From positions 62,001 to 126,000 of the forward strand of contig NC_084672.1 in NCBI RefSeq assembly GCF_028389875.1: a DNA stretch of 64,000 bases. Direction: 5' to 3'. Positions 5,771 to 64,000 of this stretch are shown piece by piece. This DNA comes from Rhea pennata (taxonomy: Eukaryota > Chordata > Aves > Rheiformes > Rheidae). Position 1 is the stretch's first letter. The number at the start of each line of letters is the position of its first letter. Position numbers and translations under genes: made by a program. Below the pieces are notes generated by a model that ran no database searches, had not been told where the DNA came from, and saw only the letters and a program-made list of their open reading frames with translations.

Positions 5771-7524
5771 ATCTGAAGAATCTGGGGCATTAACTCATCT
5801 GCTGTAATCTTCCTACTTGAACGCTGCCTCTTACCTCTGAGAAGCTGGCTTTTGCTTTCATTCCACAGGCAGCTGTCAGCTGTTGGGCAGTCTTAGCAGG
5901 CAAGTTGGGGCTCGCTGCCCAAGTAGTTGTGACCTGCAACACCACGTGTTGAGAACAGTTCTCAGGGAATCATGCAGATCCATAACCTGAAGGGTAAGAA
6001 ACAAGTATCTCTTAAGGATAGTTTTTATTTCATCATAGGAACAATTTTTTCCCTCTTTTCTCCACTGTACTGCCTCTAACAACACACCTTGTCATCATTA
6101 TTTTCTGCTGCTACTTCCACTGCTCTCAGTTGCCCCGCATTTTAGTCCTCTAAAGCGGCTGTTTTTCATCCACATGTATTTTCATATCTGGTCACTGCTG
6201 ATTCCCCCTTCCATTTGTCCTATAGCAGGCAGCTAAGACACCCTGGCCTAGTTCTTAGCTGCACATCCCTTCTAGTCAGGCCAGCAGCTCTGATAGAGCA
6301 GAGGGCAACAAGAAGAGTGGATCTAAATGTAGTAGTCCTGGGCACCAAGCAACACAGAAGCAGCAGCAAAGCATCCAAGAGATCACATCTTTCTAAAGAA
6401 AATACATATAGCTCCAAGTGACTGAGGATTCCCTTTATCTGTACCCAGGGCTCCTGCAGGTTCTTTCCACACAGTTAGAAGTACCTGAATGTGGCTGTTC
6501 CAGGGTCTCTCAGGCTGTTCAAGGATCCTTGGACAGAAACAGCACTGATCACATTTCCCTGAGGATTTTGCCTTGTGCTTCATAACAGGACAGCTCTGCA
6601 CCAAGCCTTCCCAGCACCACCGCTGTCTAAGAGGCCCCAATCCTGAGCAAAGCTATGACTACCAGGAGCCCACACCACCCCTTGCACTCCTGCTTGCCTC
6701 CCCCACTGCCAAGAGGGAAGGCCTCAGCCCCTGGGACAACCTGCCTGCTTGCACCAGAGATGGAAAACACTTTCTGCCCTGCACCAGGGAAAATAGGAAA
6801 ATTCCACTGGCCCCAGTGACCTACAGGGACTCTTGTATGAGTAGCACTTATCCAGTAAGGAGTAGACACAGCAGGCTTCTGCTGCAGGGCTGAGAAGGCA
6901 GAGGAACCTGGAGCTACAGCTCCTGATTGCCACCAAGCACAACATGGCTGGCTGTTAGGAGCCCCACTGGCAGAGAACCACACCTTCCAGTACCTCGAGA
7001 GGCACAACATGATCCCCCAGAAGCCCAGTATGGGAATGTTGTCCCAAAATTGGGTTCTGTTACACAGTGTGCAAGGAACCAAAAGACACACAGGGTTGAG
7101 ATATTTGTTTATTTCCTTTCCCTGCAGAGATGGGTGCTAAGTGGTAGATCCACAAAGGTAGCACCCCTTCTCCTTTCCTCACTCTTTATTTATATATGTG
7201 TTTTTCAGGGAGTACTTTATATGATTTTTGCTATTGGTTACAATTTTATCACATCATCCATTAACTCCATGCTTGCACTTTAACATTCCTGTTAATTAGC
7301 ATAATACACAGAGAAAAAGACAGTAATATATTAGTATGTTAATAAGCCTTAATGAACTTATAGGTTACTCTCTGTTGTTCTGCTGTTTTTGTCTTGTCGA
7401 CTCCTCACACTGTTAAGTGTTGTGGTTTCCTTGAGGTTATTCTGCTGGAACCGACTGTCTTTCGCATTACTGTTTTACGATATCCTCTCTTCCTTCTCCC
7501 AGGATTTGCACAGCCGCGTTCCAA
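5771..7524. other. Unique sequence, no gene recognised
   Basis: Mixed-composition DNA between the minisatellite and the 62-bp array. Short frames on both strands lack family similarity. I see no repeat, RNA gene or exon I can support. Confidence 0.5.
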
Positions 7525-7531
7525 CAGGAAG

Positions 7532-7550
7532 ACTATATCTCCCAGCATGC
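7532..7550 (+). promoter_or_regulatory. Canonical ZNF143/Staf-type site
   Basis: ACTATATCTCCCAGCATGC fits the vertebrate promoter motif ACTAYRNNNCCCR with its GCATGC-type extension, known as a ZNF143 site. It aligns with the ZNF143-like segment of the 62-bp units but is closer to consensus. It is followed at 7,561 by AAAATGGC (YY1-like) and by CCCGGAAG (ETS-like). Confidence 0.7.
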
Positions 7551-7554
7551 GTGG

Positions 7555-8450
7555 CAGACTAAAATGGCCTCCCGGAAGCCCCGTGCCGGAGGAACACACC
7601 TCCCGACAGGCCGCGCGAAACAACATGGCTTCCCGGAAGCCCGGTGCCGGAAGACTACCGCTCCCGGCAGGCCGCGCGAAACAAGATGGCCTCCCCGGAA
7701 GCCCGGTGCCGGAAGACTACCGCTCCCGGCAGGCCGCGCGAAACAAGATGGCCTCCCCGGAAGCCCGGTGCCGGAAGACTACCGCTCCCGGCAGGCCGCG
7801 CGAAAAAAGATGGCCTCCCCGGAAGCCCGGTGCCGGAAGACTACCGCTCCCGGCAGGCCGCGCGAAAAAAGATGGCCTCCCCGGAAGCCCGGTGCCGGAA
7901 GACTACCGCTCCCGGCAGGCCGCGCGAAAAAAGATGGCCTCCCCGGAAGCCCGGTGCCGGAAGACTACCGCTCCCGGCAGGCCGCGCGAAAAAAGATGGC
8001 CTCCCCGGAAGCCCGGTGCCGGAAGACTACCGCTCCCGGCAGGCCGCGCGAAACAAGATGGCCTCCCCGGAAGCCCGGTGCCGGAAGACTACCGCTCCCG
8101 GCAGGCCGCGCGAAACAAGATTCCTCCCCCCCCCCCCCCCCCCGGAAGCCCAGTGCCGGAAGACTACATGCCGGGGGACCGCAGTGCTCGGTGAGGTCTC
8201 AACCTGTGACGGCTGCTTTGCCCCCCTCCCCCATCCCAAACACACACCCACACGCACACGACCCGGAAACCGCCGCAGAGCCCAGATCACAGCTTCGCGC
8301 TCCCCAGCACCGGCCCCGGCTCCCCAACACCGCCACGACCGGCTCCAGGTCAGCTCTGACACTGCCCCTGCCCCCACACGACCCTCTCTAGAGCTTCTCT
8401 GGGGATCTCTCCTGCCCCTCCCTGACACGGCCCCGATCTGACCCCGGACC
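7555..8450. promoter_or_regulatory. CpG island overlapping the 62-bp array
   Basis: High GC with many CpG dinucleotides, largely supplied by the array units (GCCGCGCG in each), continuing into CpG-containing C-rich sequence to about 8,450. A possible plus-strand splice donor, GCTCG|GTGAGG, lies near 8,190. No coding exon was recognised. Confidence 0.65.
8126..8143. repeat. Poly-C run (18 nt) in the last array unit
   Basis: Expansion of the CCTCCCCGG segment of the module. It directly precedes an ETS-like CCGGAAG. Confidence 0.95.
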
Positions 8451-8469
8451 CCTCCCCGCGCTAATCTGA

Positions 8470-8850
8470 CTGCTCATTAAACTCCACCACAGCCTCAGTG
8501 CAACCCCTTCCTCCAGCGCACCCTCAGCCCCGGTGCAAGCCCTTTGTCTTCCTCCTCCAGCCCCAGCACACTGCCTTCCTCCCCCTACTCCACAGCCCTG
8601 GTGCACTGCTCTTCCCCACCTTGTCCTTGGTCCCCACTGCATGGCCATCCCCAGCCCCAGTGCAGTTTTCCCTGGCCTAGAGTGCCTCAGTTGTGCCATG
8701 TTGCCCAGGATGCTTCTGTCACTGAAACCTCCAGCATGTGCAGGACCTGCAGCCCAGCCCCCTCCCTCCCCCCCAGCCCTGCTCACCTCCTCTGTGGTGC
8801 AGCTGCTGTTCCAGTCCCAGTAGGCACTGCTCAGCAGCAGCTCCATTGTG
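8470..8850. repeat. C-rich degenerate minisatellite
   Basis: Pyrimidine-rich plus strand with recurring phrases such as CCTCCAGC, CAGCCCCGGTGCA and CAGCCCTGGTGCACTGC, loosely every 40-60 bp. It yields several overlapping proline/serine-rich frames that I regard as artefacts. Confidence 0.55.
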
Positions 8851-9039
8851 CCAGACTGCCCCCAGCATGAGCTTCTCCCAAATGCACACCCTGCTCCCAG
8901 AGTGTGCCCACTTCCTGCCTTTGCAATCAACCCAACACGTCCCACTTGGGACTCGTCCCAGCCTCAGGGTGCACAGCTGCAACCTGTCAGGGACAGCTGG
9001 GGTTGCCAGGGCACCAGAGGCACCCTGGCTCCTCAGAGC

Positions 9040-9470
9040 ACTTTCCTGAAAGCTCAATGGAGAGCCCTGGGGTGCACAGAGAGGAAAAGAGTATTCAGAG
9101 GACAAGAGAAAAAAAAATGAGAGCTATGGGTGCAATAAAAGTTAAAAAAGGCAATGAAAAAGCAAACAAACAGAGTGACTCTGGGGGCACCAAAAGACAA
9201 AGGGAGAGCCCTGGGGCACACTCAGAGGCACCCAGAAAACTCTGGGAGAGAGGGAGAGTAAAAAGCTAAACAGAACGTTGTGGCATGCTGCAAAGCAAAT
9301 ACAGGGCCCAGGGGCACACCATAAGGTACATGGGTGTGTTGGGGGCAACCCAAAACGTGAATTGAGGGGTTCTGAGGGCATCAGAGGATTAACACAGGAC
9401 TCTGAGGCAAACCAAAATACAAATTGTGTGCACCAGTGGGGCCATAAGGCACATCACAGGGCTCAATGCA
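9040..9470. repeat. Second block of the purine-rich minisatellite family
   Basis: Phrases GAGAGCCCTGGGGCACACTC, GGTTCTGAGGGCATCAGAGG and GGCCCAGGGGCACACC match the wording of positions 4,500-5,700. It appears to be a displaced piece of the same family, beyond the 62-bp array. Confidence 0.6.
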
Positions 9471-12400
9471 GCTGACAGACTGGGACGGTGCCTGCAGGCT
9501 CCCCCCATCCACATGGGGACTCCCAGCTCCAAGCAGACAGGCCCCGGCCCCAGGCACACGAGGGATGTTGCAGAGTGCAGAAAGCAAATTTGGGATCAGT
9601 CTGGGCACCTTACACAACCCTGAAGGGGCCCTGGCTTCCCCCAGGATGATGGGAATCACACCCAAGTAGTGCAAGGGAAATTCCCCATAGTCCTGTGAAC
9701 AGCACTGAGTTCCCTGGGAACCACACAGGCACTCCAAAGTACAAGGGACTTGGGCACTAGGTACTGGCCCCAGGCGCAACATGTAGCCTCCTTCCCTGGG
9801 TATCATCTTCAGGAAAAGGCACATCCAGAACCAGAGACGCGAGTGCAAAGAATAAAACAACTATTTATTGTTTTACTGTGCAGAAACGTGACCTGGAAGT
9901 GAGTCTGCCACGGAGCTGGGTGCCAGCATGCTTCCCCTTACCCTGTGACACCTGAAGAGTCATCACCAGCATCCGTCCGTCCGTCAGGGAAGGGTCAGCT
10001 CCTGCTGCTGCCCTTGACGTGGCAGGTGTCTGCGTAGCTGACGGCCTACCCCTTCTGCTTTTTCCTTTTCTGCATTTTCCTTCAGGGATAGGATTCAACT
10101 CTGAGAATTTAGAAGACTATGCCTGATCTCACCTGTCTGTGCTTTTGCCTTGCCCCAGATTAGAGCCCTGCAGGACACTTCCACAGCAATCAGCTTGCCT
10201 GTCGCATCACCAGTCCCAATGGATGGGCCTGGACCACACGAAACCCAGACCTTGTGTCAGTGCACAGAATTGAACGCTGGGTACAGGGGAAGATGAGAAA
10301 CCTCGAACGAGGGTTTGCAGCCTTAGGCTGCCTAGGCTTCAGGGCTTACAGGTTATTATCTATGGATTTTTCATTAATCAGTAAGCCCTAAGCCCTGAAC
10401 CTTAAGTGACAAACTGCACATGTTGGCACCCAAATGGTGGCTGAGGCTGTAAAATCTAGGGATGAGGTTGGATTTTAAATCCTGCACCCTGATCGCTAGA
10501 TGAGCGACCTGTGAACTGTGACTGCTAAAGGCTAAACCCCACAAAATAAAGTAAGAAACCATAACCCCTGTGTAAGAGACCCTCAACAACAAAATAAATA
10601 AACCTCAAGTGAAAAAGTCCAAACCCTTAGCTTTAAGCAAGGAAAGATGTTTCCCCTTCATTTAGAAGGGCAGCAGAACAGGAAGATGTGCACCAGAATC
10701 CTGTTACTGTTGCTGTTTATAGGCTAGCTTTTAGCCACTGTTCAAATGTGAGCACGTGCAAGAATCATGTCACTGGACTGCACTAAGCTGTGCTAACACC
10801 AAACATACCTAAACACCGCAAGCAATAATTCCTCTCTGTTACAGACCATTAATATTTTTGCTTATCTCAGCTCCATGGGCAACCATCCACAGCCAGTGAC
10901 AACTGTAACCACTAAGGGCCAAACCACCTGCAGCTTCCCAGCCCTGCTCACATACAGCGCAGCCCCAGGACTTAGCTGTGTCCATGCTGCAAGTCAGGGC
11001 TCATCTTCTGCAGCCAGCCACAGATCTCTGTAGAGAGCTCCCAGCTGTGACAATGCTCTTTCAACTGCCAGACAATGCTTCAGCACCTGTAAAGAGGCCA
11101 GAACAGTTACTGAGAGGCCAGGCAACTGCACAGCCCTCCTAGAACTACTCCCTAGTCCACAACTAGGGCTGACTGTAACCGACCAATAACCCCTTTAAAT
11201 GAAAGAAGGCTCAGAGGAGATGAACACAGGCAAGATGCCCTGATGCTCAGGAATGGTATAAGATGCAACTTGGTAATCCCAACTGTTGCACGGAGAATTG
11301 ACTTGATCTTAGCACAAAGGGGGGCAGAGGATAACCTTTGCTTTAGATAAGTAATCATATATTGGTGAAAACGTTTCTATCTAAATTCAGCAAAGGATGT
11401 GAATGTGTCTCTGAGATTAGCCAGACCAGCATGAGAGAAGTGCATACATGGCTCAGCCCAATACAGATCATGAAGCCTGAACAACTAACGAAGAAATTTT
11501 TGAAGAGAGCAACTGGCCGGAGCTGGCTTCAACCCACATATTCTTTCCTTGAAAGTGGGGGTGACCAGCGTCATGATGATGAGCACATTGTAGAGACTGG
11601 TAATACCAATTACACTTGTATTGTGATTTCAGTTTATTACTTTATCACTCCTCTTAAAAAAAAAATAACATCAAATACCTTTAAATGAAATCTTTATATC
11701 AAACATTGTGCTCTCCATATGCATGGAATATCTAAGGGAACCTCGTCAGAGACTACTAGACCCTGACACTGACCCTCTATGTGAATCAAACCACCAAGGT
11801 CCCTGGGAGACTCTCAGTTTAGAGATTTTTCCCTCCCAGAGCTTTAATGATAGTTCCCTAACCTGGGCAAATGCAGATCTCTCCCCTCCCCGAAGCACTG
11901 TAACAGTTTTTATCCTGGAGTCCCAAGTTGCTATTATGACACAAAGCAGCAAAGCAAGGCAAAGACACGTGAGGTCACAGCTTACTCATCTAGCCACAAA
12001 AATTCTTACTTTAGACCTCACTGCTTCCTCCAGGTAAACAAACCTCCAAAGAGGCAGCTGAGGCTTCACACAGACCTGGTGGCCCTGCTAGCAAGAGCAA
12101 TGCCACAATGACTGGGCTACCCATTGCTATTCCCCCTTTCCTTTCCTGGTCTGTGAATTGTGGCTTATTACCCACAATTCAGGTAAGGACACTGCCAGCC
12201 TTACTACTGCCAAAGGCTCCTTTGTCAGCACCTGGCAGAGAACCTTCCAAAATTGGCATTCAGATTCTCCCGGCTGCTCTTGACACACAAGTTACACAGG
12301 TCTGAAAGCAGTAGCCTGTAGTTCTTCATGGCAGCATATAGTCGTTCCCAGCTGTTCTGAATGCCAAGGATTAACACAATTTATAAACACAAAAATACTA

Positions 12401-13790
12401 CCACTATACAGCATAAAGCCAAGCTAAAATATCTGCAACCTCTTTGTGTCCAACAGAATGAGCCGCGTGCATCAGCGCCTACAGCTCAAGGCCAGCAACA
12501 CCTCCCGGGCAACGTTCTTCTGGCAGGCTCTCTACCTGAACGCCTCCGCCTTGCCTAGGAGTCTCCACTGGGACGTTATAACTTTGTCAGCCAGCACTTG
12601 TTAATGGAGGCACAGTGAAATCCTTCACCCTACAAAAGTACAGGGTGAATTAAATCAATCAAAGCTCTTCAGAAAACCGTAAGAATCCAAAGTTGTTTAT
12701 AAGCACAAAAGCAGCTCTAACACACACACACAAGCAAGGTAAACAGGGAATATGCAACTCACAAAAAACGCTTCCCCCAACTCTGCTTTGGAAACGATGA
12801 CAACACTTAAGTTTGCTGCAAAAGGGAAGTTAGACTAAGCAGCTGCTAGAGAATAATCCTTCAGAAGCCTTCTGCACCTGCATTTTTGGCTCTGCCGTGC
12901 TCTGCCCCTCAGTCAGTTCAGACAGGCACAAGATCCCTGTCCCGTAACACTGGCACAGTAACCCCCCGCTTGTTAAGATGAGTGCCCACTGAACCACCTG
13001 GATAGATGATCCCCTGCTGTCTATTCCTATGCCTGATGTTACTACTTTAGAAGGACCTGCGCACATTGGATTGCCTCTGTGCTATCAAAGGGAGAAGTCT
13101 CAGAGACAGTTACAGCCCAGAGTGCTGCTAAACAGTCTTTCTCATAGCCAGATTCTGGCCCCAAAGGGGATGCGAGGATGATGCTACCGGCTCCCGCTTT
13201 CCCTTGCTGCTGTTTTCTAAGGGTGCTACTCCCCTAGAGTCAGCAGATGTGCAAAGCATTACTGAGAAGGCTTGCCTTGTCCTGGGAATTTGAGGGCAGG
13301 AAATGTTAATTAATTCCACGAGGCTTTAATGTTTCCTCTATCTGCTGTCTTCCTCTTTCCCCAAATACCACTGCCAGGTAACTAAGTGGGGGCTGCACTA
13401 ACTGAATGCCTCTGAAAACGATCTCTTAATTTTACAGTTCACATGCTTTCTCCCTCTCTCTCCCCCTCTCCTTCTTCAGTAACTCTGGCCACTTGACTAT
13501 CATTCTCTTAAGATAATAATTTGCTGCCTTGTAGCTTTTAAAATAGGATCTTTTGTAGGCACGTAAAGTCACACACACAGAAATACACGTACGTAGCTTA
13601 CTTGTTGTAAGGCAGAGCGACCTTCCGTTATACATCGGTGATCTGTTATTCCGATCGCTCTTAATGGTGAGCCTTCCTAGTCAGGAAGGATGGTCTTTCC
13701 TTTGCAGTAGACAGAGACAGCTCTCAGTTGGTTCCATTTGGTTTTCTCACTTCAGCTCGCTTATGTTTTTCTGGTCTCTTCAACTTCAGC
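9471..13790. other. Unique sequence, no gene recognised
   Basis: Over 4 kb of mixed sequence. AATAAA-type hexamers occur on both strands near 9,851-9,868, where a 77-codon minus-strand frame (ending SRFCTVKQ) runs. I found no similarity that would make it an exon. A short (CA)n lies at 12,720-12,732. Confidence 0.5.
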
Positions 13791-15270
13791 CGCGACAATT
13801 CGTCTGAAAGGGTAAGTACTGTATCCTTCCCTTTCTATCTACGCGTGTCCGCTAACAAAACAGAACAGCCGAAGCAAAATTAAGGCAGATGCAGTTAACA
13901 ATATTCACAGGGCAGAAATGGGTTGCTTAGCCCTCAGCACTGCCTCTGGGAGGCCGAAATAACAAACAGTCGTTACCAGCAGTCACCTTACTTGCCCACG
14001 GCAGAACACCTCCTTCCGCAGCAGTTGCTGGGGATATCAGAGGTCTGCTGTGCTTTTGATTTCTTGTCTCATTCACTTCATCCCTTAGATATTAATCTCA
14101 AAAAGACCGTTTGTCCAGCTTTCCTCTCCGTCAGCAATTGGTATCGTTGGTTCCAGCTCTGTAACAAAGAGAGAAGCTGCATTTTACTCTCAATGAGAGG
14201 CAACAAAAGCCTTATACATGTACTTTTTCTCTTCCCCATGTTCTTTTCCCTTTTCCTTCTTTCCTTTTTTTTTTTTCTTCCTCCTCTCCTTTCACTTTAC
14301 CTCAGACGTTACAGGGTAAACTGTCGAGAAACTCTGCGTACAGCAATTAGGGCTAGGTTATTAGACAGGCAGACGCATCACCTAATGCTTACCTATGCCA
14401 TCTTCAGCGAAGCCTTGTTTTTATCTTGCTTCGGTACTATCGTTACTGTTCCATACTCTTTCTCAAACCCTTGCACATGCCCGCTTAACTGACAATTCCC
14501 TCAGTCTTTAACTACACCGAAGAAGGACAGCACTTGGTGCGCCCATCTCTGTTTCAGACCTATCACCTTTTCAATTCAGCTCCCAGATTCCCCTTACGCT
14601 CGGATGCTTGTCTCACGGGTGATGACCAAAGCGAACAGCTGGACCACTAGGTCTAGCCGCTTCTCTTCAAGATGTCCCCTTTCGGGGGACTACCCTGCCA
14701 AACAAATCCAAGACAACTCATGAGGCCACTAGGTTTTAGACACAGCCTCCTCGAGGCTTTCTGCATGATGGACAAAACTGCTTCTCTTCATACTGCTCGC
14801 AGCTATGCTCATCTATTACTTAGGCTAAACTGGTTCTACTTTAAGAGGGGATTCTTGTTTGTTGCAACTTTGTGTAGAGTCCGTAACTTGCTACACATCC
14901 TCTCCAGTCCCTTCTGCTTTCACAAGGCTTTCTGTAACAAAAGGTGGTAATTAGTCGCAGCCATTCTCTCACAGGCTGGATTAAGACATTCCTCCTGCTC
15001 TGAGGAGGTGCCTGAAAGCCAGGCTCTTTTCTGTAGCATCCCTGGGGCTTCCCAGGGCCCATCAGTGTTCTTAGGCTTCTCCCAGAGCCTTCTATTTTTT
15101 TAAGTGACTCCTTAGCCTGCCATTTTATGTTAGTGTTCCCCTTAAGCATTGGGCACAGCACAGTTATCCCAGACCAGCCACCTCTTGCACGTACAGAGGC
15201 TTCTGAGAGTTGGCTCAGAAGAAAAGAGAGAAAGATCGGTTTGCCATCTGTGCCTCCACTCACCAACTTA
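13791..15270. other. Unique sequence left of the CpG island
   Basis: No recognised coding exon. A strong donor-like sequence, AAAGG|GTAAGTACT, is on the plus strand at 13,811/13,812, following CpG-containing sequence. On its own this is not enough to call an exon. Confidence 0.4.
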
Positions 15271-16477
15271 CTTCAGGCTGTGCCTGGCGGCAGAGAACCC
15301 TTCAGGGCGTCCGGGGACATCTTTCTTCTATACGTCCGCTCGCTCGGCCTGGCCACACTTCTTAAGGGAACAACTCCGGGCTGCGCTAACCGTACCTGAC
15401 TGGTACGGTTCTCCTTCAGCTGGTTTGCTCCAGAGGGTAGAAGCTTCCCGTGACTCACCAGCGCTCCAGGCCACACCTGCCGACGCCGTGCAGAACCCCG
15501 CTCTGGGACCCCACTCATCCGGGCTGTGTTCGCATGGGCGAGCGCACACCGGGCAGGAGCCAGGGCCCTAAAGGCGAAGCCAAAGTCAGACCCGTGCCGC
15601 GGCAAACGGGATGCCGCGCAGGCAGCCTCCATGCAGCGACGGCCTCAGCGGACAGGCGGCAGCCCGCGGCCACACGAAGGGACACGCTCGCCTCACGGCC
15701 GCCCCTAGATCCTCCACCTCAGGCGGCCTCGGCCCTCACCCGCCGCCGCCACCGCGGGAAAGCTCCGCCCCTGCTCGCCGCCATACTGCTCCCTGCCGCC
15801 GCCCGCGAATGCGGCACAGCCGCAGCAGCAGCAGCCGCCCGGCGGCCGAGCAGCGCGCCGGGCCGAGGGCGCGGCAGGCGAGACCCAGGGGGAGCGGGGC
15901 GGGGGGGCAGGCGAGACCTGGGGAGGCGCCCTCGCGTGCTCGCGGCGCGGCGCTGCTTCCGGGCGGCTCCCGCGTGCGAACCGCAGTCCGCTGCGGCCCC
16001 GCGGGGCTCGCCCCGAGGCTGCTCTGCCCGTGCCCGAGAGACCGGCGGCGATCAGCGGGCAAGCTCTGGGGCTGCCCCAGAGCGAGAGTCGCGCGGAGCC
16101 GCTCCGGGACGGCACTGTCCGTCCCCGCGGCACCCGGGAAGCAGCGATAAGGAAGAGTTCTCTGCGCTACCGGCCCGAGCGCGCCGGGAAAGGGCGAGGA
16201 GCAGGGCCCATGCGCTTACCCGTGAGCGAAACAGCGGAGAGGAGCGGTGAACACGGCGAGCGGCGCTGTGCGCGTGTGCGACGGCTGCCGGCCGTATTCT
16301 CCGGTCGCGGCCGCAGTACTGGCTAGTGGACACGCGAGGGCAGCAGTGAGCGCGGCGGAGCGAAGTGTGCCTGCGGCAGGCGCGTTCTGGTGCAATACCG
16401 CCTGTTGAACACGCGGTGGCAACAAGGAGCACGGCGGAACGCCGTCCGCATGCGCCTGCTGTTTCGGTGGCAGACGA

Positions 16478-16720
16478 CCGAGATGGCCGCCCGGAAGCCC
16501 AGTGTGGAAGACTACCGCTCCCGGCATGCCGCGCGAAACAGACATGGCCGCCCGGAAACCCAGTGACGGAAGACTACCGCTCCCGGCATGACGCGCGAAA
16601 CAGACATGGTCGCCCGGAAGCCCGGTGCCGGAAGACTACCGCTCCCGGCATGCCGCACGAAACAGACATGGCCGCCCGGAAACCCAGTGCCGGAAGACTA
16701 CCGCTCCCGGCATGCCGCGG
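16478..16720 (+). repeat. Second composite promoter-module array (4 units, 61-62 bp)
   Basis: ATG landmarks at 16,483, 16,544, 16,606 and 16,668. Units share CCGGAAGACTACCGCTCCCG with the 7.5-kb array and lie in the same orientation. Here the ZNF143-like segment keeps CATGCC rather than CAGGCC, and the YY1-like part reads ACATGGCCGCC. Units are more divergent from each other than in the first array. Confidence 0.93.
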
Positions 16721-17065
16721 GGGTGCTCCGCCGCGCTCGAATTACTTTGACCCTAGGGCGATTCCGTTCCGTCTCGACCCACAATACTGCCCGGGGCCCC
16801 TCCCCCGACCAGCCGTCCCGCCGAAGTACTGCTCTGTGGGCATACTGGAGCAGGAGCCTTTTCTGCGATACAGGTTCGTTATCAGGAGAGCAACAGGGAG
16901 CATAGCGGGGACCGCGTCCATATTCCAGAACATTGGGTTGTGGTACCGCTTTCTGGTGACACGAGGGCTGTTGTGAGTACTGCGACGCCAGGGCGCTCGC
17001 GCGGCACACTTCCTTGCTGTGCGCGTTCACAGGAGGAGGGCAGCCGTAAGCCCGGTGGCGCCACG

Positions 17066-17075
17066 GCGCATGCGC
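17066..17075. promoter_or_regulatory. NRF1-type site GCGCATGCGC
   Basis: An exact copy of the NRF1 palindrome core within the CpG island. A second exact copy is at 17,285-17,294. Such sites are typical of housekeeping promoters. Confidence 0.65.
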
Positions 17076-17284
17076 AGGACGAGTGGCTGTAGTAGCGCAC
17101 ACGGTGTGGTCACACGAGAGCCCACGAAGCCACTGTGCACCCGTAGAATTCTTGCTGCAGCTCTGCACTGTGATCGCAGGAGAGCAGCAGTGAGCAAATA
17201 AGCGCTGGGCGCTTGCGCCGGACCCTTCGCTGCAGTACCGCACTGCGATCACGTGAGGGCAGGAGTGACCCCGGTGGAGTCATA

Positions 17285-17294
17285 GCGCATGCGC
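17285..17294. promoter_or_regulatory. NRF1-type site GCGCATGCGC
   Basis: Second exact palindrome. An E-box CACGTG lies about 35 bp to the left, in GATCACGTGAGG. Confidence 0.65.
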
Positions 17295-17675
17295 GGGACG
17301 CCGGGCTGTAGTACCGTGGTTACCACGCGGCAGGAGTATGGACGTGCAAGTGCGCATACGTAGCACTTCTGCAGCAATACCTTTAGAGAACAGGGGCGCA
17401 GTGAGGCTTGCGGCGCCATGGCGCATGCCTGCCAACATCACGCACTGGAGTCGGGCTGCGGTACGCAGTGCGGTGCGCTCAAAAAACAATCCCGCCAACC
17501 TGGGCGCCATGCGCGGCTCAGCCTTAGCTCCGCGGGGACGCAGGCTTAGCACCCTTTTTTTTTGGCATTGCTGCTTTCTCTGAGGGAAGAAAAGCGCACA
17601 CAGCAGAGGAAGACGGACTGGAGCCCTTAGGAGCGGGACCCAACCTCTGCCCAGCCCTGCAGCACACAAGGACCC

Positions 17676-22552: not shown

Positions 22553-22666
22553 TTATTTCCCATAAAATTTCTTATTCAGAAGGAAGATCAGAAGGTTGAC
22601 ATTTACTTTTGCTCTGTCAAACAACTTCATGACTGCAACGCCTTCATACTGCAGCTGCAAAAGATC
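22553..22666 (-). CDS. IQGAP1: IQGAP1 exon e31: C-terminal coding segment and stop
   Basis: 114 nt coding, phase 0 start after TTGGTAG, ending at TAA (22,553-22,555). It encodes [20 protein letters not shown], then [17 protein letters not shown] and stop, the invariant IQGAP1 C-terminus. The exon continues into the 3'UTR without a visible intron. Confidence 0.96.
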   Translation of the reverse strand, partial: DLLQLQYEGVAVMKLFDRAKVNVNLLIFLLNKKFYGK

Positions 22667-25600
22667 CTACCAAAGAAAATACATTTATCAGTGAGAAATC
22701 CTCCAGGGCTAATCAAGAATCTGTAAGACCCTAGGATACAAGGGGCTTTTGAGGACGATCTCATGAAATATATGGCATAAGTTAGGAAAATGAGTGGCTT
22801 AAAGATCTACCAGCACTGCTAAAACCACTCTAAGACAAAAGATCTTCATCTTTTTTAAATGTTTATGAAAACGTTTCATTGAAAACTGTGAAAGAGAGCA
22901 GAAAACAGTTCTAAGAAAGCCAAATTTCAAATCTAGACATCTCCAGGCTTTTCACTTCCTCAATTGCCATAAGGTCGTCATAATTTTTAAAGCGCGTTTC
23001 TCTATATGCCTAACCATATTAGGTACCCGTGAAACATTATATTCCACAGCATGACTTTATAAAAAGCTGAGCGGCCACAGGCCTTACAGAGGCAGTTTAG
23101 GGCACTGCGATCTAAGGCAGTCCTTCACGAGGACTAGAAACAAAATGCTGATTCAGTGATGCATCAGAGAGGGGAACAAAAAGACTCTCCTGATCTGTCT
23201 CATCAGTGGACTTATGTCAGCAGCCCCACTCTTGAATACCAAATACTGGAGGAGGCATTCATCCAGTGCTACTGGAGGGAATAATCTGTCTCCTGCTGCT
23301 GTCCAGTCTAGGTGACACTGGAATAAGTAATTATAAAACTACTACTCCTGTTTTCCATAAAAATTTTGACAACGACAATGCAACTCTTTTTACTGATGCC
23401 ATTGTTAATGCTATACTTGGATTAGTGCAGTCAGATTCCCCGCTCTCAGAACATTTGCATTTTCTGCAAAGCAGCGCTACAGAGGAGTAGTGGTACAGCA
23501 ATCTGTATGTATTAAGGGTGAATGACCTGGGGTAACCAAATGAACCAAGAAGTTCACAAACAGCTCCAACAGATTAGAACTGAAATGAACTAGAAGAGTC
23601 CTCTGAGCACTTATAGGGGACATGCACTGCAGCGGTGCCTCCTAGCAGCCAATTAGGGAACATGTGAAGGAGAGGAGATACAGACTTATCACGATGCACA
23701 GCGCTCCTGCACATAATCTATTTCAAGACCCCTGAGGCACTAGAGATCAAAAAACCTAGTGATGCCTAGGGAGCAAATTTTGGGGGACACCCAGAAGTAG
23801 AAGGAGTGGACAGAGATGTCAGGCATAACAGTACCAGTGTAGGAGGCACAATGGAGACTGTTTGGAAAAAGTTAGGTCTGCGTGCCTTTTCCAGTGGCCT
23901 GGAGTAACTAAAAGCTGAGGACTCCCAAGAAGTCGGCAGCTAAAGAAGCCAGTTAACTGCAGGGTGGCAGGAAAAACACCAGTACGCAATGAGTGGCAGA
24001 AGCCAACATGCCCAAGCCCAGCTGACCACTGCAGCAGACTCCTGATCTCTTTGCTGTAATGGAAAGTTGTGAAGCGCACACATGCGTGGATGTGTGTAAC
24101 TATGAACACAGATCGGTATCAGGAAACAAACAAATTAGTCTGAATCTCCCACTTGCATTACATCCGTTTCGCCTGCAAAAGGGTTGTTTTTAAGTGCATT
24201 TTTCACACTGCCCAGGCAGAAAAATATGTGATTAATATTACAATAGTGTCTGGCAAGCAGAAAAAGTATTTGCCGGCCGCATGCAGCCACAGAACTTACA
24301 GATCATACATTTTCAATGTTAAACAGGACAGTTCTCACCTGGTAATGTAACATAAAGGTTTCCATCTGTACTCCCATGAATTTTGCTTTTACCTCAAAAT
24401 CTCCTACTTCCTCTGTTGGACTGATTTCAAATATCACATTTTTAAACCTATGAAATTTGAAAAATGGAAACAGTTCATTACTGAACACACAATTCCTAAT
24501 GAAACAAGAAGGGAATACACCAGGTGAACTCAGAAGAAAAATTTCCAAGAATCTCATTCTTAACTCTAATTCTCTCTCCCTATTTAGAATGAGACCATAA
24601 AACCAAACCAGACTCAGGAGAATAATGAACGGAAACACAGTCTATGTCTACCAGAGCACATCTTTATGAAAGCAGTAATATCCTATCATAGGAAACAGGA
24701 TACTTTAGCACTTGCATATCAACACCCTCTTTAGTGTGCAAAGCACAAAACAGCATTCAGAGTTGGAAAAATTCTTGAAGCAGGTAGCTTTTAAATATTC
24801 CACAAAAGACATGACAAATTCTCAAGGCTAACACAATGCAGTTGGACAAATCCAAACTAACAATAAGTTGATTTTTTTTTTTCAACAGTGAGAGTTCTAA
24901 CTATTGGAGCAATTCACTAATTCACTTGAGGAGGTACCCTTCCCTGACTGCAGGGGTGGGGGGGAGAGAGGGGAAGCGATCATCTTTAAATTTTGCCAAA
25001 CCTCTCTATCAAAGATCCACTTCAGTTCACCCAGAAATAACAGAACTGAAAAGAGATCACTATGTAAGGTTTCCTGGCCCTTGCTACACAGGGATGCCAG
25101 CCTAGATAATTAAAACAATTTGTTCAGCTTTGATAGCTAAGGCTACAAACAATGCTGAATTTCAAGAGTTCAACCGTAAAGCAATCTGTCATGATCTCAG
25201 ACAAATATCAAGATCAATAGAACACAAACACTACTTGCAGCCCCCCAAAGGGATTATGTTCCTCAAGTCTGTGCAAGTTACAAGTAAGAGACAACAGAAT
25301 TTAACATACCTGTTTCCCTCTTCCCCCAGAGAGCTTACTTACCTCTTAAGGTTAGATTTTAAAGAGAAACTCACTGGTTAACTTGCAGGTCTTCAATCTC
25401 TAATAGCACTCCCTTCTCATGAAGTCGAGCTGCCGTATATTTTAGAGATATCTTTTTACTATTTTTGCCTTTCATCTCTCGAGGTTTCTTAGAGACCCTG
25501 TGACAAATAGATGATGAGTCAATGAGTAGGGAAATCCAATTTGGGCAAGTAGCTAGAACCAGTATAGCTAATAAACTGTAACTAACACTGCTGATAAACT

Positions 25601-28600
25601 GACTAGAAGAAATACATCATCCACCTACATCACATTTGTAGCTTGGATGTTATCTGGGGCAAAAGCCATGTCTTTGTACGCTAGAAAATGAGAACAGGAG
25701 CATGTGACTCGCCTAATGCATGAAATCTTTAATTTCCTACTACTTCCCCAAACTCTTACACAACAGGAGGAAAAAAAAAAGAAAAGAAAAGAAAAGACAT
25801 GGTACTTTATAGGAAGCAGTTCCATTTATCATTAGGCAAAAGTGAATCTTCTTAAGGTTAACAAGGCATTTTATTCGTATTCTGAAAATGGACCAGCAAC
25901 AGCAATTTCTACACAAACAGAAGTTAAAAAAGTAAGTGTAGCTGATTAATTCGATGATCCAAAATTACACACATCAGATATACTTACGCGTGACCTATGG
26001 CCCTGACTGGTTTACACTGTTTAAAATCTTCCTCTTCAATCTCAGTGTTCCTACTGCATGTCCAAGGGGAAAACCATTACAGTTGTCCTCCTTACCCGTT
26101 AGACTAATCTCTCCCTCACTGTCCATCCTTAACTGCTGCCCTAGGGTTTGACTTTCTCCATGTCTATTTGAGAAAACACAAAGACCCATTCTATCTTACA
26201 GTTCAAGTTCTACTTTAAAGTAGGTCTGCTTATCATGCCAGTAGTTACAGGCTTAAATTCCCCTACATCCCCCTGTTTCACATCTCTATGCTTCACCCTT
26301 TCCAGTAACAATTCACAAGGGCCAAAAAGCCACCTCTGAAATCTCTTCAAAACAGAAAATTCTTTCTGCAGCATGTTCAGATGAAAAATGTAACAGAAGA
26401 ACATCAAAGGAACTGCTGCTTTATATCAGAATGACACAAAGTGGGATTTCTCTCACTTATATCAGCTGTCAGAAAATTAGGAGAATATGCCAAACTTTCT
26501 CTATGGCCAATTGCCAGAAATAGGCACCTCCAAGAGGGCACGCAAACCCATTCCCCCCCCCCCCCCCCCAAAAATAATCTCAGCCTAAAATGGACAACAG
26601 TTCACTGCCCGTCAAAGCAAAAGGAAGTGATGAATTTAGGAGGAAGATATCACTTTTTGTCAGGAAAACCTCAGCACCTGAATTGGCTTCCATTGAAATA
26701 AACAACTCAGGACAAAAAATAAGACAAATCTTAATCAATGCTTGTAAGTAATCAAAATAGAGAACTTAAAAGTTAGATTAGCTTCATTCTCTGCTTTTAG
26801 AAAGAACGACAGGACAGACTGAGCAGCAGATGTGTTATTTGGGCACCTCACTTTATTCCCCCTGCTTCTATGTTCCCCTCTCCCAGAAGGACAAAAAATA
26901 TTTTAATATGTCTTTTTGACCTCATTCAGGGCACTGCCCTCTCCCTGGTATTTTCACACCATTGGTATGATCCTTCTGCAGGATCATTAGTTTGGTAAAG
27001 TGCTTAGACCAGAATCTCTGAGCAGATGGCAGTCCCATTCTTCTTAGCATTGACATATAACTTTATTCTTTAAGGAGTGCTTCTAGAGCCACAGCTCCAA
27101 GGTCCCAAGATACTTACTTGCCCTTGCTTGCCAGGTTATCCAAGCAGGTTTTGATGTAGCTTTTGTAATAATCCACTTGTTCCCCATAAAAGGTAGCTTT
27201 GGAGTTCAAGGCACTGTACGTCTGCTGCAGCTTCACCAGCTCTGCCTTTCTTCTCTGACGGTATCTACGCTGATTTCGGATATCCTACAGCACAGAACGA
27301 CTTAGCAGCCACTGCTGGATGCTCTCTGGCAGTTGCTCAAGCCCAGCACATTGAGACAGACTATTTGAAATGCACTATTTTGATTTGGCTTAGCCTTGCT
27401 TTAGGCTACAAGCTGTAGCGAGATTCCCCAGTCATACTTGCCCCAGTTTAAGCTTCACCACCTCTTCTGTGTGTTGACTATTTATGGAACTAACCAACTC
27501 CCTCCCCACAGCAGTTTATTTGAATGCGTTTTTGCTTTCTCCAACTTAGATGCTGCCAGAGCTGCAGTGACTAGAGCGGGCACTAGCAGTAGGGGAATCT
27601 AAGGGTTGCGTCAACTTCTACCTTCTCTGAGTAAAAAAGAAATCCTACAAACGCTATAATCATACCAACGCACAAAATTTCCTCATCTTTCTTTGTCAGC
27701 CAGCCATTTTAAAGCATATGTTACATTAATAACTGAGCAAAAAAGTGTCACACAGTCAAATCAACTTCCTTTTTCTTTTCTGATGCTTATTAACTACTTG
27801 ATGATTGATTCCAACATAAATAAATAATCACCTTTAGAAGTCATGTTATGTACATAATCTTTCTCACACATTACCTCGGTGAATTTGTGGTACAAAATAC
27901 ATCCTCGCCATAGTAATGAACAACAGTATGATACCAATTTTGAAAGATTTTTTGTCTCCTGCTTTGCATTTTAGGAATTGTTGGATGGGTATGTTTAAAT
28001 ACAAATACTGCTTAGGATTTCTTTTAAGTTATGTGCAAGGTTTTCTTGTGTGACTAAGTTTGTAGAGGCACTATTTAAACTAGTGAACAGCAATAGGGGG
28101 AGGAAAAAAAACCTCAACAGATTAGGGTTTCCCCCAAGCCACAGTATTTTTCCTTATAAAGTGCCCGAGATCCTACCAGCACAAGCATTTGAGAAGATAT
28201 GAATTTCTCATTAAGATAAATGACTTTCTAAACACAAAGAGGTGAAAACTCAGCAACAAAGAAGTATGTTTCATGTTTCTAAAGTAACTAATGCAAAACT
28301 TACTCCTGAAAACTCCATAGACTAGTTTCACAACACTGCAAATTGTGGAAAATCATAATCACGACTACTAGGAAACCACTGATGGAAATACCTTTGCAAT
28401 ATCATTGATTAGTTCCTGGTATTTATTTTCTGCATTCACAGTCCCCAGTTCTGTCAGCTTCTTCAAGCCTGTCTTGATTTTCTCTTTTTTTTCTTGAAGA
28501 TTTAAATTGCTGTCTTCCTTTACGGATATAGACTTTTTCATCTTATCAGGAGTTTTAGCATCACGAATGGCCCGTTTCTGCATAGCTCTTTGATGCTCTG

Positions 28601-31600
28601 CTTCCTAGGGAAAAAAAAAAGCAACAAAGCTACAAGTTCACAAACAGATTGATTTTAAGGTGATTGGGAACCACTCTGACTTCCAGCATAACACAGGATA
28701 GAAAATTTTGTTCAGATATTCCTTTACTGAAGCCAGTGAATGCATTTTTGGCAAACGCATTCATGTATAGGAACCAGCACTAGCCCACCTGCTGTTTAAA
28801 ACAGCCTTCTAGATAGACAGACAGACAGACATTTAGCAGCTATCAAAAATGTTAAGTTTATGCATACAATGTATTTCCATTATATTCCCTTCCCATCGTT
28901 GTGACACGCATTTCCATCATCAACATGTCACAGCCCCACTGTAATACACAACCTCTAGGCTTCGATGCAGATTCCCAAGTATACCCGCATATGTCTGGAT
29001 AGACAATAATTTCTCAGTCCAAAAAGAACGTAAGGAAGCAAATTCTTCATACTTGCTCTGAAGTAGCTGGAGTTTCTAAGATTTCAGTCAGGGTTTCTCC
29101 TGGTTGGAAGCGGATTACATCAACAATTAAACGCTTTGTACTGCAAAGAAATCAAGGAGAATAGGCGAGAACATTTAAGGCTGAAAGACCTTCAATATTC
29201 TTGCTTTGCAACAATGACAAAGCATCACCAATTTCTCTAGTCACATTTTCACTGGATGCACACTTGGCCTATCATAAACCAGACCAGATCCCTGATAACT
29301 CAGTGTCAAAAAGTAAATTACTTTTCAGAAACTAGTTCCCTGCGAGGTGCTCTTATGCAGTACACCGGTTTGCTCCCCAGCACCTTCGTAAGCACTGGGA
29401 ACATTACCCTCTATATTCCAAGGCAGCCCCAGTACTGCTATCTGGACCACAGAGGCTGCAATTCTAAGGTGAAAGGCAGAACAGGTAGCAGCAACAGCAA
29501 TCTCATGTAGCCAGAAAAAGTCTAAAATAATACCTATCCATAAGTGCACTTTAGTGCTTTGTAATAGGTATCAAACATCTCCATAGGGACTATTTTTTTA
29601 CGTATAGAGTAATTGAGCCCAACTGGGTATCTGTCTCCAATCTGGAGCAAGACAGTGTTGTTCCTTGACCTCGGTTACGATTTAATCACAATCAGTGCCC
29701 AGTCCGATGCAATCTGTCCCTGAAGCAGATGATGAAACCAAAGCGTACTTTCAATACTTTGTAGTGAGGTTGTCATTATTTCTGGCATCACACAAAGTCT
29801 GTCAACACCTTTCTTTATCATCAATATCTTTGATTACTACAGGCACAGGCCCAAAATCTTTTCTGTTGTAATCAGTGTTAGATTCTTTTGGTGGGTGGGG
29901 AAAATACTGATATATCTTTTGAGAAACCCAGTTAATGTAAGTTATTCTTGGAAGGGTGACTTTTTTTCGGGAGGTCACTGCTCCGGCAAGACCCAGTGTA
30001 AACCAACCTGAAGACTTCTCAGTTTAACTATCTAGCATCTGAGTAAGAATGTGTATTCACCAGAGCAGGTGAATATGCAACTGAATGCCAGATAGCTGCT
30101 CTACACATCTCAGCAATAGGGGCTTGCTTAAAACTGGCCAAGAGATAGGAAATAGTACTAAGTCCTCCCAGATGAAGAGTTTGGTAATAATGAAATCCTG
30201 ACTGTTCATTGCTCTCTTTCAATTAGGCTCACATCGCTTCTTTTCCCAAAAAGCTATTAGGCTTCATTGGATAGAGTCAGATTTGAGGAATACAGAATCT
30301 AGAGAGAAGGGGACCACATCAATTAAATAAACCAAAAAAAGGACAAGAACAACAGCAAAGATATCTGAAGGAGATACTTTCCCCAATTAGGGGAAAAGCT
30401 ACATAGAAAGAAGCTAATTCTGTAAGAACTGGCTAATTTAGCAGTACAGTACAATATTACTCATATGTACTAGACTTTTGGTTACTCACAGATTTTCCAT
30501 ATGTTCCTCATTTTGTATTAAAAATATTTGCATAAGGCATTATATAGGCAACACAAATATCAATACATCTAAATTTTAGATCTGCAGACTTCAGGGTTAA
30601 ATTGTGATAAACACAATGAATTACTTCAGAGAGCCTTTATGAATTATTCACATACAGGTAAATTTGCCTGCTTTGGTCTCACTCACATCCAGAAGCTTTT
30701 TCTGACAGTTTTCCCCTCCAGAACCAGCAAAAAACAACAACAAAAGCCAAAACAAAAACTTTTAAAGGAAGCTAAATTCTACTGTGACAGAGAACAAAAC
30801 AGAACAAATTTAACAGCCACAGAATTTCAAGGACATGGCTATAAGCTCACTGTATTCTGAGTATCAGCCCCACCTTAGCTTAAATTAAATTTCGATTCTT
30901 TTATTTTCACATACAGATTAGCTGTAAAGATTCAGCTTCTACCCTGCGCATTGTCTGAGATATGTGCCAGGCAGTTACCCCTCACTTACTTCAGCAGAAT
31001 TGTCCTTGCATCCATCTCTGCGTTCTCATCACCAGGAACATCAAATTTATTAGTGAGCGTGAGAGAAACTTCAGTCTTTGCTAGCATTTCCTTGCTGGGG
31101 TCATTAACATTGCCAGATCCTTCCCCTGCCAAGTAGAAAAAGGTGTTATACATTTGATTGTATTCTTCTCATTCTTGACTGCTAGAGCTTTGTAATTTTT
31201 CCTACTTAACAGACCACAGAAAAATAACACTGAGCTTCCCACACTGTTAAAATGATATTTCATATGCCAATAATGGATTTTTAAAACATTATCTTGAATA
31301 TGTCAGAGGATTTTTCTTCACAAAACTGACAATGAATGGGCCACGAAGAGAAAGGTAGCAAGTAATCTCAAGTCTGTAGACCTTACAAACGGGGTATATC
31401 TTGCACACTATATCTCAGCCTCTCTTTCTCTATAATGAGAAGTCTACCTGGCCAGCCAAAAATATGTTAAATAGAAGTATCGGTCTGCTTTATTGCCCGT
31501 GTCATCATTAGAATGAATTTTTAAAGCAAAGAGTAAAACGCTTATTAGAAACCAACCTTGTAATCTTCTATTAAACAAACTAAACTATCCTGTCAAAAGG

Positions 31601-46600: not shown

Positions 46601-47021
46601 TCCATCAGGAACAACAACAAAATTAGTTTATTGCTTCTGGAGGCAGAAAATAATATTATAATAAGACTAGGATGTAATGATAGGTTGGTCAGTTCACCAC
46701 AAACTGCAATAAGGAGGAAAGGTGGATATCACTGATGTGTACAGTGGTCTGTATTTTAAAAAGGTCTGATGTAGTCTAGAAACACTTGATAGAACTGAGA
46801 CAAAACAACAATACACCACACAAATAATAAGCTAATGTGCAGCAGACAATAACATGTAAGTTGTGCACATGCACATTCTCACCACTTAGCTACCAACCCA
46901 CAGGAGATACACAATTAGCTACAAACACTAATCTTCTTCACAGAGATTTGTCCAATGAGCTAACATGCTCACAGGCAAAACCAGAAAAATGATATATATA
47001 TTAAAAAAATAAATAAATTAA

Positions 47022-47055
<34 letters not shown>

Positions 47056-63728: not shown

Positions 63729-63789
63729 CTGAAAAACAAGTCACATCCTACCAGTTAGTCACCAACACAATAGCTCTAACCGTAACAAG

Positions 63790-64000
63790 TTTAGAACAGA
63801 CTGAGGGGGGATCTTATCAATACGTATAAGTATCTGAAAGGAGGGTGTCAAGGGGACGGGGACAAACTCCTTTCATTTGCCCCGTGTGACAGGACAGGAG
63901 GCAATGGGCAGAAATTGAAGCACAGGAAGTTCCGCCCGAACAAGAGGGGGGAGCACTGGCACAGGTTGCCCAGAGAGGATGTAGAGTCTCCCTCTCTGGA
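63790..64000 (+). mobile_element. CR1 LINE fragment, opposite strand, runs off the window
   Basis: Reads in the CR1 sense direction: GACTGAGGGGGGATCTTATC, then AGGACAGGAGGCAATGGGCA and GCACTGGCACAGGTTGCCCA. It is close in sequence to the 3' region of the 55-kb copy but inverted relative to it. It lacks about 25 nt between GAGGGGG and GAGCACTGG. It lies just upstream of e1. Confidence 0.9.

What the first reader, a model, noticed from the sequence alone, without database searches (positions are those of the whole stretch)
7525..8170. Tandem array of a 62-bp module combining E2F, YY1, ETS and ZNF143-type motifs
About ten direct units each carry GCGCGAAA, AAGATGGC, two CCGGAAG cores and ACTACCGCTCCCGGCAGGCC. 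All four are known housekeeping core-promoter motifs, here fused into one repeating unit. A block of up to about 20 ETS cores and 10 ZNF143-like sites in 0.65 kb is not an ordinary minisatellite. It could be an amplified promoter, a strong bidirectional promoter, or a transcription-factor sink.
Basis: partly seen in the sequence, partly recalled or inferred. Interest (0 to 1): 0.75.

Follow-up and report, generated by a model that had tools for sequence, protein, structure and literature searches.

The report
Promoter-like repeat at bird chromosome ends
A short repeated DNA block that looks like a string of housekeeping-gene switches turns out to sit near many chromosome ends of this bird, always pointing the same way relative to the tip, which makes it a candidate switch for RNA made at chromosome ends.

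Summary
The array is real: a 62-bp unit, about ten copies, 7527-8173, with ETS, ZNF143/THAP11-like, E2F and YY1-like sites that shuffled units do not reproduce. It does not look like a local gene promoter. The window starts 62 kb from the start of a 25-Mb contig, and the array belongs to a subtelomeric family: 87 listed matches, 39 merged loci at 31 contig ends, 39 of 39 in one orientation relative to the nearest end, 38 of 39 within 100 kb of it. A second array at 16477-16719 lies in a CpG island with NRF1-type repeats; the ~8.9 kb from array to array matches a tandem element on another contig end. Two copies elsewhere abut interstitial telomere repeats. Across 15 array consensuses from 12 contig ends, the ETS and ZNF143 part varies less than the rest. 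I read it as a subtelomeric Pol II promoter-type CpG island, resembling human TERRA promoters (61-29-37 repeats), which also carry NRF1 sites. Transcription, direction and factor binding are untested. The outermost array lies 14-17 kb from the telomere tract on three measured ends, farther than human TERRA starts, and YY1, E2F and NRF1 sites are not shared by all copies.

The parts
7527..8173 (+). Array 1: ~10 units of 62 bp (ETS, ETS, ZNF143/THAP11-like, E2F, YY1-like). The contig-end (telomere) side is the low-coordinate side.
7532..7556 (+). Edge unit with an exact M4 (THAP11) motif ACTATATCTCCCA and an SBS with 2 mismatches; a similar first unit (by eye) starts the array that abuts telomere-like repeats on contig C1
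7654..8087 (+). Seven homogenised 62-bp units differing only at one C/A site
8088..8172 (+). Last units, broken by a poly-C run and (by eye) by loss of ~10 bp inside the ZNF143-like site
7001..7526 (.). Telomere-side AT-rich flank of two cassette subfamilies; in the 400 bp next to the array 96-99% identical within and 79-80% between subfamilies
8174..8500 (.). Centromere-side CpG-island flank, 67-70% identical between subfamilies
8174..16476 (.). Body of one tandem subtelomeric element (~8.9 kb array to array); window 8333-16280 is collinear with the stretch between two arrays on contig C5, 76-77% identical over most of it, less in the first ~1.2 kb, with gaps
15300..17600 (.). Second CpG island (GC 0.57-0.83 per 100 bp)
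16313..16466 (+). Two ~75-bp NRF1-type repeat copies on the telomere side of array 2 (no exact NRF1 site in these two)
16477..16719 (+). Array 2: ~3.8 units of 62 bp, SBS with 1-2 mismatches, GTGGCAGAC just before its first unit as in array 1
16940..17428 (+). Further NRF1-type repeat copies with exact NRF1 sites at 17066 and 17285
22553..57499 (-). IQGAP1 exons, the first recognised gene inward from this contig end (context, not part of the element); one exon by PDB match, the others by recalled peptides

Best explanation
The array is a subtelomeric CpG-island repeat with the make-up of a housekeeping core promoter. Shown: it recurs at many contig ends in one orientation, keeps high CpG, and its ETS and ZNF143/THAP11 part varies less between copies than the rest. 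Inferred: GABP-type ETS factors and ZNF143/THAP11-HCF-1 (and NRF1 and YY1 in the copies that have those sites) bind it, hold it nucleosome-free and unmethylated, and start RNA polymerase II transcription of noncoding RNA in the subtelomere. It would be a functional counterpart of the human 61-29-37 TERRA promoter. Copies spread as ends of tandem ~8-9 kb subtelomeric elements by exchange between chromosome ends.
For: 87 listed matches, 39 merged loci, 31 contig ends, 30 contigs; 39/39 one orientation to the nearest end, 38/39 within 100 kb; leaving out six contigs under 1 Mb, 33/33 and 32/33. Terminal telomere repeats at 8 of the 30 of these ends that were read. Two arrays (C1, C25) abut interstitial CCCTAA. 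CpG o/e 0.86-1.40 in 11 of 11 arrays measured. 15 of 15 consensuses have an SBS within 2 mismatches, 11 of 15 two exact ETS cores, 4 one; ETS+ZNF143 columns vary less, Fisher p=0.0008. Unit consensus 89-92% identical between subfamilies whose flanks are 67-80% (the short C14 array is an exception, 80-82%). Array 2 and the C5 array 89-91%, the element around them ~76-81%. NRF1-type repeats on the telomere side of arrays on C5, C7, C13 and C61, as NRF1 sites occur in human TERRA promoter repeats (PMC6600276 passages).
Against: No transcription, chromatin or binding data. Outermost arrays lie 14.7, 13.6 and ~16.9 kb from the telomere tract on the three capped ends measured (the third span holds 5000 N); one paper's introduction puts some human TERRA starts 1-2 kb away (PMC3928237 passage). 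Exact M4 in 0 of 15 consensuses; array 1's SBS core is changed; exact E2F in 6 of 15, no exact YY1. No exact NRF1 site in 12 of 12 flanks of other types. The p value is post hoc and the copies are related. Motif orientation and base skew disagree on direction. 12 of 30 ends read show no telomere and 10 read only N, so 'subtelomeric' rests partly on contig ends.
Confidence: 0.58

Rival explanations
1. A passive subtelomeric satellite. A housekeeping promoter fragment was captured at a chromosome end long ago and amplified by unequal exchange; its motifs are relics with no present role.
For: Array 1 interior has a changed SBS core and no exact M4 site; edge units of array 1 keep array-2-like states while the middle is homogenised (by eye), as neutral turnover predicts; matches span ~9.4 kb on C22; a 10-kb block 94.7% identical is shared by the C10 and C14 ends.
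Against: Flanks diverge more than units in most comparisons and ETS/ZNF143 columns vary least; CpG is not depleted in 11 of 11 arrays, which needs germline hypomethylation or constant renewal.
Confidence: 0.3
2. A recombination product. Birds lack PRDM9 and cross over at CpG islands, so the islands themselves bred minisatellites from promoter DNA; the arrays are scars of hotspots near chromosome ends. This is about origin and does not exclude promoter function.
For: Two different repeat families (62 bp and ~75 bp) grew in one CpG island. Literature: recombination rises at CpG islands and transcription starts in birds (PMC10781513 abstract and passages; PMC5698624 passages).
Against: Does not explain fixed orientation and end restriction of one sequence family.
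Confidence: 0.2
3. The promoter of a neighbouring protein gene, single or bidirectional.
For: CpG islands, ETS/ZNF143 motifs, a splice-donor-like CTCG|GTGAGG with its GT at 8191 (seen by eye).
Against: IQGAP1 ends at ~22.5 kb and runs toward the array; nine ORFs beside the arrays match no Pfam family, though a true IQGAP1 exon ORF in the same call did not either; regexes for recalled CRTC3 and other peptides found nothing; the same kind of array sits at 31 contig ends.
Confidence: 0.04
4. A sink that titrates ETS/ZNF143 factors.
For: Many sites: 260 full-length units in the loci read, some C22 units counted twice.
Against: No positive evidence; ZNF143 is credited with over 2000 promoter regions (PMC7154149 passage), so a few hundred imperfect sites would titrate little (inference).
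Confidence: 0.02

Closest known systems
Human TERRA promoters, the 61-29-37 subtelomeric repeats
   Same: Subtelomeric, CpG island, tandem units of about 61 bp, on many chromosome ends (37 of 46 in T2T-CHM13, PMC12242772 passages), NRF1 sites in a second repeat (PMC6600276 passages)
   Different: No sequence comparison made; here ETS/ZNF143-based; outermost array 14-17 kb from the tract on three ends; NRF1 repeat seen in one cassette type only; transcription not shown
HCF-1/ZNF143/THAP11/YY1/GABP CpG-island promoters of housekeeping genes
   Same: Same set of motifs (title of Michaud 2013 in a reference list; a mention of it in PMC7154149; the paper itself not held)
   Different: Tandem array, on C22 spanning ~9.4 kb, and no gene recognised; ZNF143 and M4 matches imperfect
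Yeast Y' subtelomeric elements (recalled)
   Same: Tandem elements of several kb near chromosome ends; two junctions carry interstitial telomere repeats
   Different: No helicase or other Pfam family in the ten window ORFs tested; bounded by CpG-island arrays
Chicken CNM and PO41 repeats (named in PMC9974502 passages)
   Same: Avian tandem repeats
   Different: CNM unit is 41 bp and lies at centromeres; PO41 is named there for part of chromosome 29; no promoter motifs described in the passages seen

Membership tests
Human-type TERRA promoter | Lies in the subtelomere | tested here: met
   38 of 39 loci within 100 kb of a contig end (32 of 33 without contigs under 1 Mb); of 31 ends 8 are telomere-capped, 12 show no telomere repeat, 10 read only N, 1 not read
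Human-type TERRA promoter | Fixed orientation relative to the telomere | tested here: met
   39 of 39 loci; two more arrays not in that list, window array 2 and one on C14, agree
Human-type TERRA promoter | CpG island made of tandem repeats near 61 bp | tested here: met
   61-62 bp units; CpG o/e 0.86-1.40 in 11 of 11 arrays measured
Human-type TERRA promoter | NRF1 sites in the repeats | tested here: inconclusive
   Exact site in the telomere-side flank of 9 of 10 NRF1-type copies (the window's own has its exact sites on the other side), the nine from 4 contigs; 0 of 12 other flanks
Human-type TERRA promoter | Within a few kb of the telomere tract | tested here: not met
   14.7, 13.6, ~16.9 kb on the three capped ends measured; only two internal copies abut telomere-like repeats
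Human-type TERRA promoter | Transcribed toward the telomere into UUAGGG-containing RNA | not testable with these tools
   no RNA data
Human-type TERRA promoter | CTCF site by the repeats | tested here: inconclusive
   recalled core consensus, <=1 mismatch: 1 hit in each of 3 and 0 in 1 of four stretches beside arrays on C1 and C45; not compared with chance
Human-type TERRA promoter | Sequence homology to the human 61-bp unit | not tested
   human sequence not held
HCF-1-type CpG-island promoter | ETS/GABP cores | tested here: met
   two exact CCGGAAG in 11 of 15 consensuses, one in 4
HCF-1-type CpG-island promoter | ZNF143 SBS and THAP11 M4 sites | tested here: inconclusive
   SBS 1-2 mismatches in 15 of 15; M4 1 mismatch in 14, 2 in 1, exact in none; exact M4 in the window edge unit and, by eye, in the C1 edge unit
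HCF-1-type CpG-island promoter | Factor occupancy and initiation | not testable with these tools
   no ChIP or CAGE
Y'-like subtelomeric element | Tandem multi-kb elements at chromosome ends joined through telomere repeats | tested here: inconclusive
   Array spacings of about 8-9 kb on C1, C5, C7, C13, C25 and C10; interstitial CCCTAA at 2 junctions; collinearity checked for one pair only

The most novel reading that the evidence does not exclude
This is the bird's TERRA promoter system: a CpG-island repeat built from ETS, ZNF143/THAP11 and, in one class, NRF1 repeats, that evolved independently of the human 61-29-37 repeats and transcribes chromosome ends in the germline. If so, mammals and birds each assembled a chromosome-end promoter from tandem housekeeping motifs.
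Probability: 0.33. Interest if true: 0.85.

Novelty: new variant of a known kind. Interest (0 to 1): 0.66.

Why it matters
How chromosome ends are transcribed outside mammals and yeast seems little known (recalled). A sequence-defined, end-restricted promoter candidate in a bird would make avian TERRA testable at single ends, offer probes for subtelomeres, and show whether NRF1 control of chromosome ends arose more than once. If it is only a satellite, it is still a clear case of promoter-like DNA turned into a subtelomeric repeat.

Tried and rejected
Local gene promoter: no gene start recognised. RNA gene: no Rfam or tRNA match in the window. Protein-coding repeat: all three + frames are open through array 1, but 62 is not a multiple of 3 and the two such frames given to Pfam matched nothing. 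Homologous flanks of arrays 1 and 2: no local alignment beyond shuffles; C5 then showed that the arrays border one element. Patterns of the unit in viral contigs and genome contigs: 0 hits, which says only that it is not there. Base skew as a direction test: the centromere-side 500 bp is C-rich on the + strand (-0.35 to -0.43) at 7 of 8 arrays but +0.04 at array 2; not decisive. PRDM9-free recombination: kept as an origin rival.

Limits of the genome list: one search scored 39 of 134 candidates, and two arrays found otherwise (window array 2, one on C14) are not in it, so counts are lower bounds.

Several listings were cut (for example 15 of 24, 20 of 37). No listed row names an avian subtelomeric promoter repeat, but most subscription papers are not held, so this is weak evidence of novelty. 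Papers seen as passages only: PMC4203960, PMC4992247, PMC5698624, PMC7154149, PMC6600276, PMC12242772, PMC7787181, PMC3928237, PMC10448526, PMC7360632; passages plus abstract (or parts of it): PMC10781513, PMC5006282, PMC9974502. Others: listing only.

Full report
Array 1 (7527-8173) has a 62-bp unit in about ten copies, seven of them differing at one site only, with degenerate edge units. ETS cores, an E2F site, a YY1 core and a ZNF143-like site recur in most units: 19 exact CCGGAAG, 9 E2F and 7 exact AAGATGGC in 7500-8200. In 3000 dinucleotide shuffles of the unit none gave the ZNF143-like 19-mer at two mismatches, and at most two of four motif classes occurred together, once. Motifs were chosen after the fact and partly recalled. 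Against published consensuses the interior ZNF143 site has two mismatches, one in its core, and of the array units only the left edge one has an exact THAP11 M4 site.

A second array of the same unit, about four copies, lies at 16477-16719 in a 2.3-kb CpG island that also carries a diverged ~75-bp repeat with exact NRF1 sites at 17066 and 17285. The word GTGGCAGAC occurs twice on the + strand of the window, each time just before an array's first full unit, and once on the - strand at 9903. Edge units of array 1 carry some states typical of array 2, while its middle is homogenised (by eye). The only gene recognised, IQGAP1, is on the minus strand and ends near 22.55 kb. Ten ORFs, nine beside the arrays and one in an IQGAP1 exon, matched no Pfam family; since the IQGAP1 exon was missed too, this is weak evidence of absence.

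The decisive result is. The window is contig C10:62001-126000 of a 1.27-Gb assembly, and the array-1 query lists 87 matches on 30 contigs. The first look had 134 candidates, of which 39 were scored, and two arrays known from elsewhere are not listed, so the list is incomplete. Merged, it gives 39 loci at 31 contig ends: + strand near contig starts, - strand near contig ends in 39 of 39; 27 within 30 kb, 38 within 100 kb, one at 236 kb (the two contig lengths missing there came). Six of the 30 contigs are shorter than 1 Mb; without them 33 of 33 are so oriented and 32 of 33 lie within 100 kb. At most 2.8% of the genome lies within 100 kb of a contig end. Of the 31 ends, 8 show terminal telomere repeats, 12 do not, 10 read only N and one was not read. 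Contigs C1, C45 and C14 carry 2.4, 5.3 and 2.5 kb of telomere repeat.

Cassette anatomy, telomere on the left: on C1, C45, C26 and C14 an array sits 17-20 kb from the contig end, 14.7, 13.6 and about 16.9 kb from the tract on the three capped ones (the C14 span holds 5000 N), with the same AT-rich flank on the telomere side and GC-rich flank on the centromere side. Two subfamilies exist: A (this window, a second copy on C14, C19, C24; the C19 right flank is only 73% like the others) and B (C1, C14, C26, C45). Between them the left flank is 79-80%, the right 67-70%, the unit consensus 89-92% identical, except the short C14 array, 80-82% to all. Telomere-side flanks of 20 further arrays were B-like 5, A-like 3, interstitial CCCTAA 1, NRF1-repeat 8, other 3 (NRF1 type). 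With C1's inner array, two arrays directly abut interstitial telomere-like repeats.

The NRF1-type arrays (C5, C7, C13, C61) match the repeat of the window's second island (best E per copy 4e-11 to 4e-8), so that island is one of them. An exact NRF1 site occurs in the telomere-side flank of 9 of 10 such copies (the window's own has none in that 201-bp stretch) and in 0 of 12 other flanks. The nine come from four contigs and the site is part of the repeat, so this describes the class and is not independent proof. On C5, window 8333-16280 aligns collinearly, with gaps and at 76-77% over most of its length, to the 8 kb between two arrays; array 2 aligns to the C5 array at 89-91%. Arrays 1 and 2 thus delimit one copy of a tandem subtelomeric element; spacings are about 8-9 kb on C1, C5, C7, C13 and C25 too.

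Constraint: in 15 array consensuses from 12 contig ends (11 distinct) the ETS plus ZNF143 columns vary in 10 of 40 and the rest in 15 of 21, Fisher p=0.0008; an earlier set of 8 distinct gave 8 of 40 against 11 of 21, p=0.018. Copies are related, the columns were defined by eye, and mostly-gap columns were dropped, so this is moderate evidence. SBS within two mismatches is kept in 15 of 15 and two exact ETS cores in 11 of 15; exact E2F in 6 of 15, YY1 within one mismatch in 11 of 15 and exact in none. CpG o/e is 0.86-1.40 in 11 of 11 arrays measured, suggesting germline hypomethylation or recent renewal.

Interpretation. Location, orientation, CpG content, unit length and NRF1 repeats parallel the human TERRA promoters, where 61-29-37 repeats in subtelomeric CpG islands drive RNA toward the telomere and NRF1 acts on the 29-bp repeat (PMC6600276 and PMC12242772, passages). 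The motif set is that of HCF-1-type CpG-island promoters (PMC5006282, PMC7154149 passages). Against full membership: distance to the tract is larger, NRF1 repeats are in one class only, direction is unresolved (YY1 orientation would point inward, a recalled rule; base skew at 7 of 8 arrays fits outward transcription), and no RNA was seen. I therefore claim a subtelomeric promoter-type CpG island (0.58), the TERRA reading at 0.33, and keep a passive satellite as the main rival (0.3). That the species is a bird rests on gene content, CR1-like repeats and genome form, by recall; the tools gave no name.

Noticed in passing
window 1-6000; C10:16000-62000: G-over-C skewed degenerate repeats; on C10 between contig start and array 1 many ~1.5-2 kb stretches match the same part of the C14 end (list cut at 60 rows).
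   Followed up: partly
C22:9370488-9379904: Matches to the array run over about 9.4 kb, the longest in the list.
   Followed up: partly
C1:2421-3637, C45:5469-5823: A G-rich minisatellite lies immediately inside the telomere tract, with strand asymmetry opposite to the CCCTAA strand.
   Followed up: no
window 794-10823: 94.7% identical over 10 kb to the end region of contig C14, suggesting a fairly recent exchange between two chromosome ends.
   Followed up: partly
window 55117-56934 and 61242-64000: CR1-type LINE remnants inside or near IQGAP1 introns (identified by eye from ORFs and self-matches).
   Followed up: no
window 8126-8143: An 18-base poly-C run interrupts the last unit of array 1; could be slippage or a sequencing effect.
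   Followed up: no
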